Shown in pieces: positions 7,711-16,352 of a stretch of DNA of 64,000 nt (positions within the stretch are counted from its first letter, which is position 1; each line of letters opens with the position of its first letter). A model generated the notes under the pieces. It was not told the DNA's origin. It did no database searches and saw only the letters and a program-made list of their open reading frames with translations. The translations under genes were made by a program, and so were the position numbers. Origin of the DNA: an uncultured Candidatus Thioglobus sp. (lineage in GTDB: Bacteria; Pseudomonadota; Gammaproteobacteria; PS1; Pseudothioglobaceae); NCBI GenBank assembly GCA_905182815.1, contig CAJJCX010000004.1, forward strand, positions 186,001-250,000, written 5' to 3'.

Positions 7711-8799
7711 ATGTTTAGAAATAAAGTTGTTCTTTTGACATCTGTAGCATTGCTTACTGCTAGTTCAAGCGCTATGGCGGTCAATTTAAAAATTCAATCT
7801 GTATTAAACTCTACAGGTAGTGAAGTTGGTTACGTTAGAGACTTTGCAGAGGATGTTGCTGCATTGACTGATGGTAGAGTAACGATGGAAGTCCTCCCTG
7901 GAGGTTCTGTTGTACCTAATGCTGACCTTATCGATGCTGTAGACGCTGGTCTAATTGATGGCGGATTTGCATGGACTCACTACTGGTCTGGTAAGCACCC
8001 TGCAGCAATGCTGTTTGGCTCACCAATCGCTGGAGCTGGCCTTGGTATTGATAATATCGCATGGCTTTCTTGGTTCCACAGTGCGGGTGGTAAAGAGTTA
8101 TACGATCAACTATGGGACGAGATGGACCTAAATGTTGTTGGTTTGATGCTTCAACCGGTTGGTCCTGAAGCGCTGGGTTGGTTTAAAGAGCCAATCAATA
8201 GTATGGATGACTTCCGTAAATTAAGATTCCGTGCACCTCCAGGACTCCCAGGTCAAGTTTATAAAGACATTGGTGTCGCAGCTGTAGCTATGGGTGGTGG
8301 TGATATTCTTCCTGCACTTGAGAAAGGCGTAATTGACGCAGCAGAATGGTGCTGCCCAGAGCCGGACAGAGACTTTGGTTTCCAAAAAGTTCTTAAGTAT
8401 TACTACTTACAAGGACTTCACCAGAACGTTGTGAATGCAGATATGTATATTAATGGCGATGTGTGGGATAAGATCTCTGCTCGTGACCAACATGCTATTC
8501 ATGTTGCTGCAAGAGCAGCAAGACTTGACTCTATGTCAAATCGTATCTATGCAAACGGTATTGCAATGGCAGACTTGCTAGAGCAAGGCGTTCAGCTAAT
8601 GGATACGCCTGAAGACTACTTCGTAGAGTTTATGGCTGCTGCGCAAGCACAACTTCAAAAGAATGCTGATGAAAATGCATTCTTTGCTGAAGTATGGGCA
8701 TCACAGAGAGATTTTGCTGAAAAAGCTGTACCTTTCTGGTCAGGAGCTCAGTCTTCTAACGCTAAGTTAGGTTTAGCTTTTACGAAGACTTTACAGTAA
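7711..8799 (+). CDS. TRAP transporter substrate-binding protein (DctP type)
   Basis: 362-aa periplasmic solute-binding protein with a signal peptide ending at about SSAMA (residues 19-23). The mature part starts with LKIQSVLNSTGSEVGYVRDFAEDVAALTDGRVTMEVLPGGSVV, typical of DctP proteins, and has the conserved substrate-carboxylate Arg region LRFRAPPGLPGQVYKDIG. It is the first gene of dctP-dctQ-dctM. Opposite lies a sulfonate degradation operon, suggesting a sulfonate such as DHPS as the ligand (the role called HpsK in Cupriavidus). That substrate is inference. A strong hairpin after the stop would favour extra expression of this gene over the membrane subunits. Confidence 0.85.
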   Translation: MFRNKVVLLTSVALLTASSSAMAVNLKIQSVLNSTGSEVGYVRDFAEDVAALTDGRVTMEVLPGGSVVPNADLIDAVDAGLIDGGFAWTHYWSGKHPAAMLFGSPIAGAGLGIDNIAWLSWFHSAGGKELYDQLWDEMDLNVVGLMLQPVGPEALGWFKEPINSMDDFRKLRFRAPPGLPGQVYKDIGVAAVAMGGGDILPALEKGVIDAAEWCCPEPDRDFGFQKVLKYYYLQGLHQNVVNADMYINGDVWDKISARDQHAIHVAARAARLDSMSNRIYANGIAMADLLEQGVQLMDTPEDYFVEFMAAAQAQLQKNADENAFFAEVWASQRDFAEKAVPFWSGAQSSNAKLGLAFTKTLQ

Positions 8800-8825
8800 A
8801 GATCTTTAGTAAAACTTAAAAACTA

Positions 8826-8862
8826 AGTTGCCAATAGTGAAAACTGTTGGCAACTTTTTTTT
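8826..8862 (+). terminator. intrinsic terminator/attenuator between dctP and dctQ
   Basis: A 12-bp stem with one G-U pair (8826-8837 with 8844-8855), a 6-base loop and a run of T to 8862 make a textbook rho-independent terminator directly after dctP. Partial read-through would give more binding protein than membrane subunits, as is common in TRAP operons. Confidence 0.8.
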
Positions 8863-8878
8863 ATCTAAATATATTTTT

Positions 8879-8913
8879 TCTAACTTCAGGTTCTCCTTTA
8901 TCCTGAAGTTAGA
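8879..8913. repeat. perfect inverted repeat upstream of dctQ
   Basis: A second hairpin, a perfect 12-bp stem (8879-8890 with 8902-8913) and 11-base loop, follows the terminator by 16 bases but lacks a T-run on either strand. It could protect the 5' end of the dctQM message after processing or modulate read-through. Confidence 0.5.
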
Positions 8914-9005
8914 AAAGCCATATTAATAGAAGGGTTTTATTTAATGAATCCTAAAATTTGTTACAATAGCTGTAGTGTTTTTTAGATTTATAATTGGGTA
9001 CATTT

Positions 9006-13571: not shown

Positions 13572-13575
13572 AAAG

Positions 13576-14880
13576 CTATTCTAATACAGGTGCGCCTAGG
13601 TCAAACGTTTCATCTGGAAAATATTTACTTAGCCTAACATCCGAGGCTCTTGCGTGTCCTTCCATTCCCTCTAATCGAGAGATTCTAGAAGATGCCTGGG
13701 CAATTTGACGTGTAGATTCTTTGTCCATACGCTGCCAAGTTAAAACCTTTAAGAATTTATGAGCAGAAAGACCTCCAGAATAACGACCAGCTGCCTTTGT
13801 AGGAAGAATATGGTTCGGGCCAGAAGCTTTATCTCCGAAAGTCACTGTTGTCTCTTCACCTAGAAATAGAGATCCATAACATGTTAAGTTGTCTAGCCAC
13901 CAATCAAGATCTTCACACTGAACTTCAAGGTGCTCTGCTGCGTATTCATCTGATATCTTTACAACCTCTTCACGAGACTCACATAGCATAACTTCACCAT
14001 AGTCTCTCCATGCACAGAATGCTGCATCTTTTGCAGTTGGTGGAAGTTTTTCAATATACTCTGGTACCAACTCCATTACTTTTTCAGCTAATTCTTTAGA
14101 TGTTGTAAATAGCCAGCCAGGTGACTCGTGGCCATGTTCCATTTGACCCACAAGATCAATTGCAACAACGTCAGCATCGGCGTGCTCATCAGCAATCACT
14201 GCAACTTCTGATGGACCAGCAAATACATCAATGCCAACTTGTCCAAAGAGCGTTCTTTTTGCCTCTGCTACAAATTTATTTCCAGGACCAACAATGATGT
14301 CAGCTTTTTTTCCAGTAAATAGTCCATGAGCCATACTTGCTATTGCTTGTACACCACCTAAAGTCATAACGTGATCAGCTCCAGCAGTCTTCATTGCATA
14401 CAGAACATACGGATGAATACTTTTACCTTGATAGGGCGTTGAGCATGCAATGATGCAAGGCACGCCAGCAGCTTTAGCTGTTGCAATACTCATATATGCA
14501 GATGCAATATGTGCGTAGCGTCCGGTTGGAACATAACATCCAGCAACATTTACTGGAAGTAGTCTTTGACCAGCTTCAACGCCATTATTTTTGGTATGAA
14601 ACTCTTCAATAGAATCACGCTGAGCCTTTGCAAACTCATAAACTTGCTGACATGCAAAATCTATATCATCCTTAACATTTTGAGGGACGTCAGAGATAAT
14701 ATTATCAATTTCAGAATCTGAGAGCAAAATCTCACCAGACCATCCATCTAGTTTTTCTGCGTAGTTTCTAACTGCTTGTTCCCCATCTTTATCTATATTG
14801 GCAAGCATGTCATGAACCACTTTTTGTGCTTCTAGTACATTTGATGCTGCTGATTTATCAGCTTTTTTTAAGTAGATCAT
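13576..14880 (-). CDS. hpsN: sulfopropanediol 3-dehydrogenase, HisD homologue
   Basis: 434-aa histidinol-dehydrogenase-family protein. HisD-type features are kept: [23 protein letters not shown], the metal-ligand region GQMEHGHES, the catalytic pair in AAEHLEVQ, and [13 protein letters not shown]. No other histidine biosynthesis gene is near; instead suyAB lie directly upstream and two alcohol dehydrogenases downstream. HpsN oxidises R-DHPS by two steps to R-sulfolactate, the substrate of SuyAB. Sequence shows the family and context supplies the function. The alternative, a true HisD, is disfavoured by context and by [15 protein letters not shown] replacing the usual HisD segment. Confidence 0.75.
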
Positions 14881-14901
14881 ATTCTTCTCGTTTATTAATA
14901 G

Positions 14902-16071
14902 TTAGGCGCTTTCATATAAACGCGTTAATACAAACTCTTGATGCCCTAATATTTCTGCAGCAGTCATTCTTCCGTTTGAAGTGTGAATAAGACTTTCAAG
15001 AAGCATATCACCAGCCTGATCCATATTGATATCACGCTTTAATAAACCAGTTACATCAACATCCACATGCTCTGACATCGTTCTAACTGTTCTTGGATTT
15101 GCACAAACTTTAATAACAGGGAGGATTGGATTACCAATAATGTTTCCTTGCCCAGTAGGGAATAGGTGAGCTACATATCCAGAGGCTGCGCATAATGTAA
15201 CCATTTCTGCAGCTGCAGAAGAAGAGTCCATAAACCATAGGCCCTTACTTGTAGGCATTTCTGCTTTATCTAAAACGCCGTCAACGACACATTTTTTCCC
15301 AATCTTTTGTATGTTGCCTAATGCCTTTTCTTCAATCGTAGTTAGACCACCTTCAATATTACCCTTAGTAGGCTGTGAATCAGATAGGTCATCTGTCTTA
15401 AAGCGCTCAATCATATCTTGATAGCGATTAAACATAAACATAAATTTTTCAGCAACAGCATCATTAGCACATCTAGCTTTAACTAAATGTTCTCCACCTG
15501 TAATTTCAGATGTCTCACCAAAAAGTAAAGTACTGTCCATTTCATATAACTTATCGAACGCATTACCAACTGTTGGGTTTGACCCAAAGCCCGAAGTAGT
15601 GTCTGATTCCCCGCATTTAGTTGATACCCAGATTTCACTTAGGTCACATGGCTCTCTTTGAAGTCCTGTTGCGAAATGAACCATATCATAAGCCGCTTTT
15701 GAAGCGTCAGCGATAGTTTGTATGTCACCTTTTTTCTCAATAGAAAAACCTTGAACTGGCTTACCCGTTGCAGCAATTCCATCAACGATTTTTTGCGTCC
15801 AGTCTGGCTCAATTCCAATAACCACTACTGCGGCAACATTTGGATTTGATCCCGTACCAATCATTGTCCTAAAATGTAGATCTAGATCTTCACCAAACTG
15901 AAGTCTACCGTAGGGATGAGGAAGGGCTATCGTGCCTTTAATATTGTTAGAAACTGCTTCACAAGCAGCATTTGAAATATCATCAACTGGCAAGATAATA
16001 ACGTGGTTACGAATTCCTACTCTATTGTTTTCGCGACGATATCCATAGATTTTTTGATTTAAATTTATCAT
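14902..16071 (-). CDS. suyB: (2R)-sulfolactate sulfo-lyase, large subunit
   Basis: 389-aa UxaA/altronate-dehydratase C-terminal family protein, matching the usual size of SuyB. It opens with [26 protein letters not shown] and contains [20 protein letters not shown] with conserved Cys, typical of this iron-dependent lyase family. With SuyA it splits sulfolactate into pyruvate and sulfite in the cytoplasm. The ATG at 16071 (after AGAGG) overlaps the suyA stop by one base; a GTG at 16077 is less likely. The altronate or galactarate dehydratase alternative is possible, but the hpsN neighbour argues for the sulfo-lyase. Confidence 0.75.
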
Positions 16072-16352
16072 TACCACCTCTTAGTTTTTACGTTATGAAC
16101 ATGTAGATGATCACCTACAGCAATCTTTGAAATTGTTCTACCAATATCTACACCATACTTGATGACAGTGTCATCTTCATTTAAATCCTTAATAGCTAAC
16201 TTATGCCCAATTGGAATATCTTGATTAATTTTGATATCTATCAAAACATCCTGGTCCATTATCCAACCACTTAGAGTGTCGTTTGCTTTTAATCCTTCGA
16301 CGGTAACAACGCCAACGGAATCATCTTCATCATGAACTATAAACTGAATCAT
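16071..16352 (-). CDS. suyA: (2R)-sulfolactate sulfo-lyase, small subunit
   Basis: 93-aa SAF-domain protein, the size expected for SuyA. It has [18 protein letters not shown], a segment [22 protein letters not shown] typical of the N-terminal module of UxaA-type lyases, and [24 protein letters not shown] at the C-terminus. It is the first gene of the minus-strand operon suyA-suyB-hpsN-hpsO-hpsP-gntR and has a good AAGGAG ribosome-binding site. A separate small subunit followed by a 389-aa large subunit is the known SuyAB organisation. Confidence 0.75.

What the first reader, a model, noticed from the sequence alone, without database searches (positions are those of the whole stretch)
7711..16352. 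Complete-looking DHPS/sulfolactate catabolic module with its own TRAP transporter
suyA-suyB-hpsN-SDR-zinc dehydrogenase-gntR form one compact minus-strand operon facing a dctPQM transporter. HisD-family plus UxaA-family lyase plus two dehydrogenases plus TRAP is the known signature of 2,3-dihydroxypropane-1-sulfonate degradation. Finding it in an aprBA-sat (SUP05-like) genome would make an abundant marine sulfur oxidiser a consumer of phytoplankton sulfonates. Families are seen; substrates are inferred.
Basis: partly seen in the sequence, partly recalled or inferred. Interest (0 to 1): 0.72.

Follow-up and report, generated by a model that had tools for sequence, protein, structure and literature searches.

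The report
Plankton-sulfonate degradation operon in Pseudothioglobus
This stretch of DNA from an ocean bacterium carries a recognisable set of genes for eating DHPS, a sulfur-containing carbon compound made by phytoplankton, and the set recurs in its relatives, including two strains already in culture, so the prediction can be tested.

Summary
Observation confirmed: nine intact genes at 7711-16352, a tight six-gene minus-strand operon (suyA-suyB-hpsN-hpsO-hpsP-gntR) facing dctPQM. HpsN groups with Cupriavidus HpsN, away from HisD, and keeps GRYAH, E318/H319 and D352/K353. SuyB groups with the SuyB of Cupriavidus, away from E. coli UxaA and GarD. The SDR and zinc genes keep the catalytic residues of HpsO and HpsP.

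Corrections. (1) The host is Ca. Pseudothioglobus (ARCTIC96BD-19), not SUP05 proper: aprBA-sat present, but DsrA and SoxB reach cut-off in 0 of 29 genus genomes (47 and 50 of 54 in other genera of the family). (2) Orthologous hpsN is in 19 of 29 genus genomes, suyB in 17, including those matching cultured PS1 and NP1. (3) The TRAP receptor is TakP-class, not HpsK-like; in five gammaproteobacterial families, its own included, it lies in one cluster with hpsN.

Most likely function: DHPS to sulfolactate to pyruvate plus sulfite, the sulfite probably oxidised by AprBA-Sat. Substrate, transporter ligand, GMC role and sulfite fate are inferred. A new variant of a known kind.

The parts
16071..16352 (-). 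suyA, small subunit of (R)-sulfolactate sulfo-lyase, 93 aa
   Evidence: 49% to the C. pinatubonensis HN-2 and 53% to the Caballeronia small gene beside suyB; stop TAA overlaps the suyB ATG; not scanned on its own
14902..16071 (-). suyB, large subunit of (R)-sulfolactate sulfo-lyase, 389 aa
   Evidence: 75% to the C. pinatubonensis HN-2 gene; 26-row clade 100/100 apart from E. coli UxaA and GarD; PF20629 + PF04295
13576..14880 (-). hpsN, (R)-DHPS 3-dehydrogenase, 434 aa
   Evidence: 685 bits to solved CpHpsN 8v35, 468 to 8wwe, best HisD 236; all 14 checked positions as in CpHpsN
12810..13571 (-). hpsO, SDR, R-DHPS dehydrogenase, 253 aa
   Evidence: 224 bits to solved HpsO 8wwf; the best hit, 6le3 (234 bits), is deposited as gluconate 5-dehydrogenase; S-x-Q-10-Y-3-K spacing kept, including the stereospecificity Gln
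11803..12813 (-). hpsP, zinc MDR, S-DHPS dehydrogenase, 336 aa
   Evidence: 250 bits to solved 8wwd (zinc-containing alcohol dehydrogenase, taken as DsHpsP), next 144; H59, E60, E139 of DsHpsP kept
11014..11787 (-). GntR/UTRA regulator, 257 aa
   Evidence: PF00392 + PF07702; present between hpsP and dctM in the genus loci
9605..10927 (+). dctM, TRAP large permease subunit, 440 aa
   Evidence: PF06808; in hpsN clusters of other gammaproteobacterial families
9006..9614 (+). dctQ, TRAP small permease subunit, 202 aa
   Evidence: PF04290
8825..8856 (+). terminator-like hairpin between dctP and dctQ
   Evidence: 14 pairs then a T run; region total 9 sites against 6.4 +/- 2.2 in shuffles
7711..8799 (+). 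dctP, TRAP binding protein of the TakP class, 362 aa
   Evidence: profile 149 bits to TakP 2hzk; only 26.6 bits to 24gc, titled DHPS TRAP transporter
5816..7435 (-). GMC (choline-dehydrogenase-like) FAD oxidoreductase, 539 aa, divergent from dctP; probable further member
   Evidence: PF00732 + PF05199; in the same locus as hpsN in L048, L049, L069, L075, L080, L083
52499..57007 (-). aprA (52499-54334), aprB (54334-54804), sat (55802-57007): probable sulfite-to-sulfate route, not linked to the operon
   Evidence: TIGR02061 999 bits, TIGR02060 193 bits, NF003166 502 bits, all over cut-off

Best explanation
A DHPS/sulfolactate catabolic module of the SuyAB type. A TakP-class TRAP transporter brings the C3 sulfonate (DHPS, or sulfolactate) into the cell. 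HpsP (S-DHPS) and HpsO (R-DHPS) interconvert or oxidise the enantiomers, HpsN oxidises R-DHPS in two NAD+-dependent steps to R-sulfolactate, and SuyAB splits R-sulfolactate into pyruvate and sulfite. Pyruvate enters central metabolism. Sulfite is probably oxidised to sulfate by AprBA and Sat, with ATP formed. A GntR/UTRA regulator controls the operon. Shown: gene identity, catalytic residues, conservation, linkage. Inferred: substrate, transporter ligand, regulation, sulfite fate.
For: HpsN is 70% identical to that of Cupriavidus pinatubonensis HN-2, which is nearly identical to the solved, assayed CpHpsN. Window HpsN scores 685 bits to CpHpsN, 236 to the best HisD. GRYAH (HisD: GSAPL), E318, H319, D352, K353, Q248, H251 and H411 are kept (roles from PMC11382572). 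Trees: HpsN groups with CpHpsN (97/99), apart from E. coli and own-genome HisD (100/100); SuyB falls in a 26-row clade with Cupriavidus, Paracoccus and Rhodococcus relatives (100/100), apart from UxaA and GarD. HpsO and HpsP residues match the biochemistry in PMC11131964. C. pinatubonensis p2 carries the same enzymes: hpsN, hpsO, an MFS gene, hpsP, suyA, suyB (the record calls the last three by generic names, and PMC11382572 states the SuyAB pathway for strain JMP134). An Ldh_2 gene lies between suyB and hpsN in L039 and L040. TRAP: in one cluster with hpsN in families f1, f43, f48, f109 and f154; 9 of 12 other class genomes with this DctP also have HpsN over threshold, base rate 12 of 368 (hypergeometric 1.5e-13, relatedness ignored).
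Against: No assay, expression or growth datum. DctP is not HpsK-like (26.6 bits) and resembles a keto-acid receptor; for TakP itself, neighbourhood had first suggested the wrong substrate (PMC1839085). In five of the nine co-occurring genomes the TRAP and hpsN are on different contigs, and G295 and G433 have the TRAP without HpsN over threshold. G021 and G027 keep hpsN but lack suyB, this dctP and an adjacent hpsO. 10 of 29 genus genomes lack the hpsN ortholog; 7 of these are under 90% complete, 3 are not. GabD-2, SlcC and other steps were not looked for in the host. AprBA-Sat is not linked to the operon, and 4 of 17 suyB genomes show no aprA over cut-off, all under 90% complete.
Confidence: 0.87

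Rival explanations
1. The imported substrate is sulfolactate, or both C3 sulfonates, rather than DHPS alone. The TakP-class receptor binds a cation and an acid with a neighbouring oxygen, as sulfolactate offers.
For: DctP is closest to TakP and keto-acid receptors. By alignment R174, E212 and W213 match TakP R177, E214 and W215, with Q156/E240 exchanged for E153/Q238; these five are invariant in the 12 homologs aligned. SuyAB is first in the operon.
Against: In L050 and L072 the same TRAP adjoins hpsNOP with no suyAB in the fetched region, which points to a substrate upstream of HpsN. The AlphaFold model was too poor to use (pLDDT 51).
Confidence: 0.35
2. The enzymes act on a non-sulfonate substrate: a sugar acid (UxaA/GarD chemistry) or histidinol (HisD chemistry).
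For: Automatic names say so: TIGR00069 hisD 413 bits, over its cut-off; TIGR03248 galactarate dehydratase as the only NCBIfam hit of SuyB; sugar dehydrogenases for hpsO/P.
Against: The galactarate hit is 132 bits against a cut-off of 731. Trees and sulfonate-binding residues put HpsN and SuyB with sulfonate enzymes. The genome has a separate, stronger HisD match (567 bits against 428).
Confidence: 0.04
3. The TRAP + GMC pair is a separate uptake and oxidation module (hydroxy/keto acid, or choline-like alcohol) that merely neighbours the hps-suy operon.
For: TRAP and GMC sit together without hpsN nearby in L084 (GMC 53%) and L090 (GMC 50%). In G133, G338 and G440 the GMC gene is on another contig than hpsN. 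GMC scores 584 bits to the choline dehydrogenase subfamily model PRK02106, just under its cut-off of 605, though 489 against 732 for the betA equivalog.
Against: GMC runs on one strand with suyAB-hpsN-hpsO in L080 and with hpsNOP in L048; the TRAP is contiguous with hpsNOP in L050, L072, L075 and L083, and with an hpsP-like gene in L088.
Confidence: 0.22
4. Released sulfite is not oxidised by AprBA-Sat but exported or assimilated.
For: A nitrite/sulfite reductase-family gene lies at 39282-40919; another sulfonate cluster carries sulfite/sulfate exporter genes (L059). No exporter was looked for in the host.
Against: AprA reaches cut-off in 21 of 29 genus genomes while DsrA and SoxB do so in 0 of 29, so sulfite is the obvious remaining substrate. 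Of 11 genomes at least 90% complete, all 8 with hpsN+suyB have aprA and 1 of 3 without does (too few to be firm).
Confidence: 0.35

Closest known systems
Cupriavidus pinatubonensis hpsNOP-suyAB cluster (SuyAB pathway; strain HN-2, L058, NZ_CP080769.1)
   Same: hpsN, hpsO, hpsP, suyA and suyB in one cluster; HpsN 70%, SuyB 75%, SuyA 49%, HpsP 47%, HpsO 44%
   Different: MFS transporter and LacI regulator there; TRAP and GntR/UTRA here; gene order differs
Ruegeria pomeroyi hpsKLM-hpsNOP (SPO0591-0596)
   Same: hpsNOP with a TRAP transporter (PMC4334477 passages)
   Different: LacI regulator there, and the CuyA route per PMC11382572; here SuyAB, and a TakP-class receptor, not HpsK-like
Paracoccus ferrooxidans pFER3 cluster (L059)
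   Same: hpsNOP-like and suyAB-like genes within about 10 kb, identified by similarity; the record names them hisD, SDR, galactitol dehydrogenase, D-galactarate dehydratase and flagellar biosynthesis protein FlgA
   Different: ABC and tripartite tricarboxylate transporters nearby instead of TRAP
TakP (SmoM), alpha-keto-acid TRAP receptor (2HZK/2HZL)
   Same: Best solved relative of DctP by profile; acid and cation ligands mostly kept
   Different: Gln156/Glu240 exchanged for Glu/Gln; ligand unknown
True SUP05 (Ca. Thioglobus) sulfur oxidisers
   Same: Same family; sat and aprBA according to PMC8359478
   Different: DsrA over cut-off in 47 of 54 and SoxB in 50 of 54 genomes of other genera of the family, this genus 0 of 29; HpsN in 0 of 29 family genomes outside g1 and g5

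Membership tests
DHPS 3-dehydrogenase HpsN | GRY(A/S)H motif with His126 in place of HisD GSAPL | tested here: met
   GRYAH in window; GRY(A/S)H in 46 of 46 other HpsN rows; own paralog L004 GKFPM, own HisD GKAAY, E. coli HisD GSAPL
DHPS 3-dehydrogenase HpsN | Catalytic Glu318/His319, Asp352, Lys353 and zinc ligands Gln248, His251, His411 | tested here: met
   All present; roles from PMC11382572 passages. Most of these are shared with HisD, so they show an intact site, not the family
DHPS 3-dehydrogenase HpsN | NAD+-dependent oxidation of R-DHPS to R-sulfolactate | not testable with these tools
   needs enzyme assay
Histidinol dehydrogenase HisD | Groups with true HisD | tested here: not met
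   100/100 split from E. coli HisD and the genome's own HisD
HpsO | Ser-Tyr-Lys triad with Gln at Ser+2 | tested here: met
   spacing met at 145-162; roles from PMC11131964
HpsP | His59, Glu60, Glu139 of DsHpsP | tested here: met
   H65, E66, E144 in the window protein; that 8wwd is DsHpsP is inferred from the numbering match
(R)-sulfolactate sulfo-lyase SuyAB | SuyB groups with SuyB of DHPS/SL clusters, not UxaA/GarD; split small subunit next to it | tested here: met
   26-row clade 100/100; suyA overlaps suyB by 1 base
(R)-sulfolactate sulfo-lyase SuyAB | Iron-dependent sulfite release from R-sulfolactate | not testable with these tools
   needs enzyme assay
HpsKLM DHPS TRAP transporter | Binding protein with HpsK as close kin | tested here: not met
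   24gc ranks far below TakP-class receptors (26.6 against 127 bits); that 24gc is HpsK is inferred from its title, the hpsK product name in PMC4334477
TakP-class TRAP receptor | Arg for the acid group; Glu, Trp carbonyl, Gln and Glu around the cation | tested here: inconclusive
   Arg, Glu, Trp kept; Gln156/Glu240 exchanged
Sulfur-oxidising SUP05 | rDsr and Sox genes | tested here: not met
   DsrA and SoxB over cut-off in 0 of 29 genus genomes each, 47 and 50 of 54 in other genera of the family; other Dsr/Sox proteins not searched

The most novel reading that the evidence does not exclude
Pseudothioglobus runs a shortened sulfur-oxidation pathway fed by organic sulfonates: it keeps AprBA-Sat without rDsr or Sox to harvest ATP from the sulfite that SuyAB releases from phytoplankton DHPS. 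Its uptake/oxidation front end is a gammaproteobacterial variant in which a TakP-class TRAP imports the sulfonate and a GMC flavoprotein, not recorded in DHPS metabolism in the papers I saw, oxidises DHPS or sulfolactaldehyde and passes electrons to the respiratory chain.
Probability: 0.25. Interest if true: 0.72.

Novelty: new variant of a known kind. Interest (0 to 1): 0.52.

Why it matters
DHPS is among the most abundant particulate metabolites measured at Station ALOHA, where likely degraders were named as SAR11 and Rhodobacteraceae (PMC8269247 passages), and Roseobacteraceae and SAR11 make over half of hpsO/P/N transcripts at most Tara stations (PMC11131964). A further widespread lineage with the route would change the account of where this carbon and sulfur goes. 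It would also offer a reason why Pseudothioglobus, described as lacking most sulfur-oxidation genes and not oxidising sulfur (PMC8359478 passages), keeps AprBA-Sat. Two cultured strains carry the module (genome lengths match PS1 and NP1), and NP1 was grown with lysate of the diatom Thalassiosira pseudonana, so the claim can be tested directly.

Tried and rejected
Histidinol or sugar-acid catabolism: rejected by trees, residues and bit scores. HpsKLM identity of the TRAP: rejected. AlphaFold of DctP from 12 sequences: mean pLDDT 51, so no fold search was made. The genome's second HisD-like paralog (L004 9060-10370) was considered as another HpsN and set aside: 45% identity, GKFPM motif, different neighbours. 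Palindromic operator upstream of suyA: the 14-base pattern tried is no more frequent than chance (2 found, 1.61 expected).

Literature: ten searches of an open-licence PMC library. In the papers I opened at passages for this (PMC12478193, PMC8269247, PMC8359478, PMC9123188, PMC12421898, PMC12168267, PMC13155104, PMC12246640) nothing ties Thioglobus, Pseudothioglobus or SUP05 to DHPS, hpsN or suyB. The lists were capped (for example 30 of 76), and of the 17 papers with both SUP05 and sulfonate only three were opened. The 20 of 69 papers listed show no GMC term beside DHPS. Absence in print is therefore not claimed: Durham 2019, Spietz 2019 and Marshall & Morris 2013 are not held, and supplements could not be opened.

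Rows left out: the trees used loci L004, L005 and L029 onward; L001-L003 and L006-L028 were left out, many being the same genomes under another handle. The two genus HpsN matches at 53-55% (G001, G019) are not counted as orthologs.

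
Full report
What is there. The region 7711-16352 holds nine intact genes. On the minus strand suyA, suyB, hpsN, hpsO, hpsP and gntR follow each other with gaps of -1, 21, 4, -4 and 15 bases; on the plus strand dctP, dctQ and dctM run towards them, with 86 bases between the two convergent ends. A terminator-like hairpin lies between dctP and dctQ.

Which organism. The nearest HpsN in the named genome collection (100%) is in a MAG titled Candidatus Pseudothioglobus aerophilus. The window's assembly has 1.32 Mb and 76.8% completeness. 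Two genomes of the same genus have single contigs of 1,714,148 and 1,689,404 bases, the exact published lengths of 'Ca. Thioglobus singularis' PS1 (PMC4616169, whole text) and strain NP1 (PMC6424205, whole text). PMC8359478 (passages) proposes the name Pseudothioglobus for ARCTIC96BD-19 and calls its cultured member an aerobic organoheterotroph that does not oxidise sulfur.

Gene identity. HpsN scores 685 bits to the solved C. pinatubonensis DHPS 3-dehydrogenase and 236 to the best solved histidinol dehydrogenase. All 14 positions checked, including the HpsN-only His126, agree with CpHpsN (PMC11382572: abstract, section 2.8 and passages). HpsO and HpsP keep residues shown by mutagenesis to matter (PMC11131964: passages, one section in part, one in full; residues). 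The best solved relative of HpsO is 6le3, deposited as gluconate 5-dehydrogenase, at 234 bits, just ahead of the deposited HpsO at 224. SuyB has no close solved relative; GarD gives 121 bits. In trees HpsN falls with CpHpsN and not with HisD, and SuyB with relatives from DHPS/sulfolactate clusters and not with E. coli UxaA or GarD. The tree tool flags long branches (own paralog L004, the HisD rows, the UxaA-type rows), so the order among outgroups is unsure; the two splits that matter carry 100/100.

How widespread. Orthologous HpsN (86% or more) is in 19 of 29 genomes of the genus, in 2 of 2 of another genus of the family (g5), and in 0 of 29 further family genomes. Two genus genomes (G001, G019) have only a 53-55% relative in a different setting. 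SuyB is in 17 of 29, DctP in 19 of 29. Every suyB genome has the HpsN ortholog; G021 and G027 have the ortholog without suyB, without this dctP and without hpsO next to it. Among the 11 genus genomes at least 90% complete, 8 have both.

Sulfur side. AprA is over its cut-off in 21 of 29 genus genomes, DsrA in 0 of 29 and SoxB in 0 of 29. The control works: in 80 family genomes (26 of this genus, 54 of others) DsrA is over cut-off in 47 and SoxB in 50, all outside this genus. So the genus keeps the sulfite-to-sulfate end of sulfur oxidation without these markers of the part that feeds it from sulfide or thiosulfate. Of 17 suyB genomes 13 have aprA over cut-off; the 4 without are all under 90% complete. 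Sulfite released by SuyAB is a natural feed; this link is inference. PMC12168267 (passages) already raises sulfite from taurine as a sulfur source in oxygenated deep water.

Transporter. DctP belongs with TakP and other keto/hydroxy-acid TRAP receptors. It is only distantly related to 24gc, titled 'Dihydroxypropanesulfonate (DHPS) TRAP transporter', the product name of R. pomeroyi hpsK (PMC4334477 passages; hpsKLM is confirmed for DHPS uptake, PMC10130141 passages). Yet this DctP type follows HpsN: in 369 genomes of the class, 13 have HpsN at E<=1e-150 and 13 have DctP at E<=1e-100; leaving out the window's genome, 9 of the 12 DctP genomes are among the 12 HpsN genomes (1.5e-13; relatedness ignored). 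A tenth, G124, has an hpsN cut by a contig end, hence under the threshold. The exceptions are G295 and G433. Physical clustering of this TRAP with hpsN is seen in f1, f43 (G124, G264), f48 (G129), f109 (G190) and f154 (G345, G440), and in L049 and L050; in G133, G271, G306, G338 and G375 the two lie on different contigs, though in G338 an hpsP-like gene adjoins the TRAP (L088). A caution: TakP was first named a sorbitol/mannitol protein from its neighbourhood, wrongly (PMC1839085).

GMC oxidoreductase. It is present in all 13 loci among L029-L045 that reach that far, and in PS1 and NP1. Among 25 hpsN loci outside the Pseudothioglobus type (L046-L057, L069-L080, L083) it lies in the same fetched locus in 6 (L048, L049, L069, L075, L080, L083); the TakP-class TRAP, whole or in part, does so in 8 (L049, L050, L069, L070, L072, L075, L080, L083); many of the 25 loci are short. 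In L080 the order is GMC-suyA-suyB-hpsN-hpsO on one strand, with no hpsP found. In the class, 9 of 369 genomes have it at E<=1e-190; of the 8 other than the window's, 6 have HpsN over threshold (7.6e-9), 7 counting G124; in 4 of these 7 it is in the hpsN locus (G124, G129, G264, G345), in 3 on another contig (G133, G338, G440). Against: TRAP-GMC pairs without hpsN nearby exist (L084, L090). Its closest solved relatives are a choline dehydrogenase and other GMC oxidoreductases, so its substrate is open.

Other sulfonate genes around. Xsc lies between hpsN and the TRAP in L070. An Ldh_2 gene lies between suyB and hpsN in L039 and L040 and beside hpsP in L072, and a like ORF in L045 (not scanned). 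That the sulfolactate dehydrogenase ComC belongs to this family is recalled.

What is known and what is new. The SuyAB-type HpsNOP pathway is known: 93 of 272 HpsN sequences in PMC11382572. The kind is therefore not new. New, as far as the passages I saw show, are its place as a common trait of Pseudothioglobus, its pairing with AprBA-Sat in the absence of DsrA and SoxB, the TakP-class TRAP, and the recurrent GMC gene. Whether others list Pseudothioglobus among hpsN carriers in supplements or in papers not held could not be checked.

Noticed in passing
L004:9060-10370 (G000:C4:75105-76322): A second HisD-superfamily paralog (45% to HpsN, motif GKFPM) in a catabolic-looking cluster with an SDR, a LacI-type regulator and, further off, a carnitine 3-dehydrogenase and a KCE-family enzyme; substrate unknown.
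   Followed up: partly
L075:3134-4360 and L083:6293-7528: A PALP/threonine-synthase family gene (L075 scanned; L083 alike by position and sequence) sits between dctM and the GMC gene in two f43 genomes with hpsNOP; an unusual neighbour.
   Followed up: partly
L070:2900-4693: xsc (sulfoacetaldehyde acetyltransferase, TIGR03457 913 bits) between hpsN and the TakP-class TRAP: another branch of sulfolactate breakdown with the same transporter.
   Followed up: partly
L039:8921-9937, L040:2528-3547, L045:8921-9937: An Ldh_2-family gene inserted between suyB and hpsN in part of the genus (L045 not scanned).
   Followed up: partly
window 39282-40919: A nitrite/sulfite reductase-family protein (NirA/CysI-like) that by position accounts for this genome's weak DsrA match.
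   Followed up: no
L044 (JAPKEL010000062.1): A MAG labelled Woeseiaceae carries a Pseudothioglobus-type hpsN-suyAB contig that groups with the genus in the tree; perhaps misbinned.
   Followed up: no
L049:2338-2574: A short dctM-like fragment (82% over 18% of dctM) lies between the GMC gene and hpsN in a Woeseiaceae contig, perhaps a remnant of rearrangement.
   Followed up: no
PDB 6le3: Deposited as gluconate 5-dehydrogenase, but it has the SLQ motif of HpsO and outranks the deposited HpsO for the window protein; may be an HpsO under another name.
   Followed up: no
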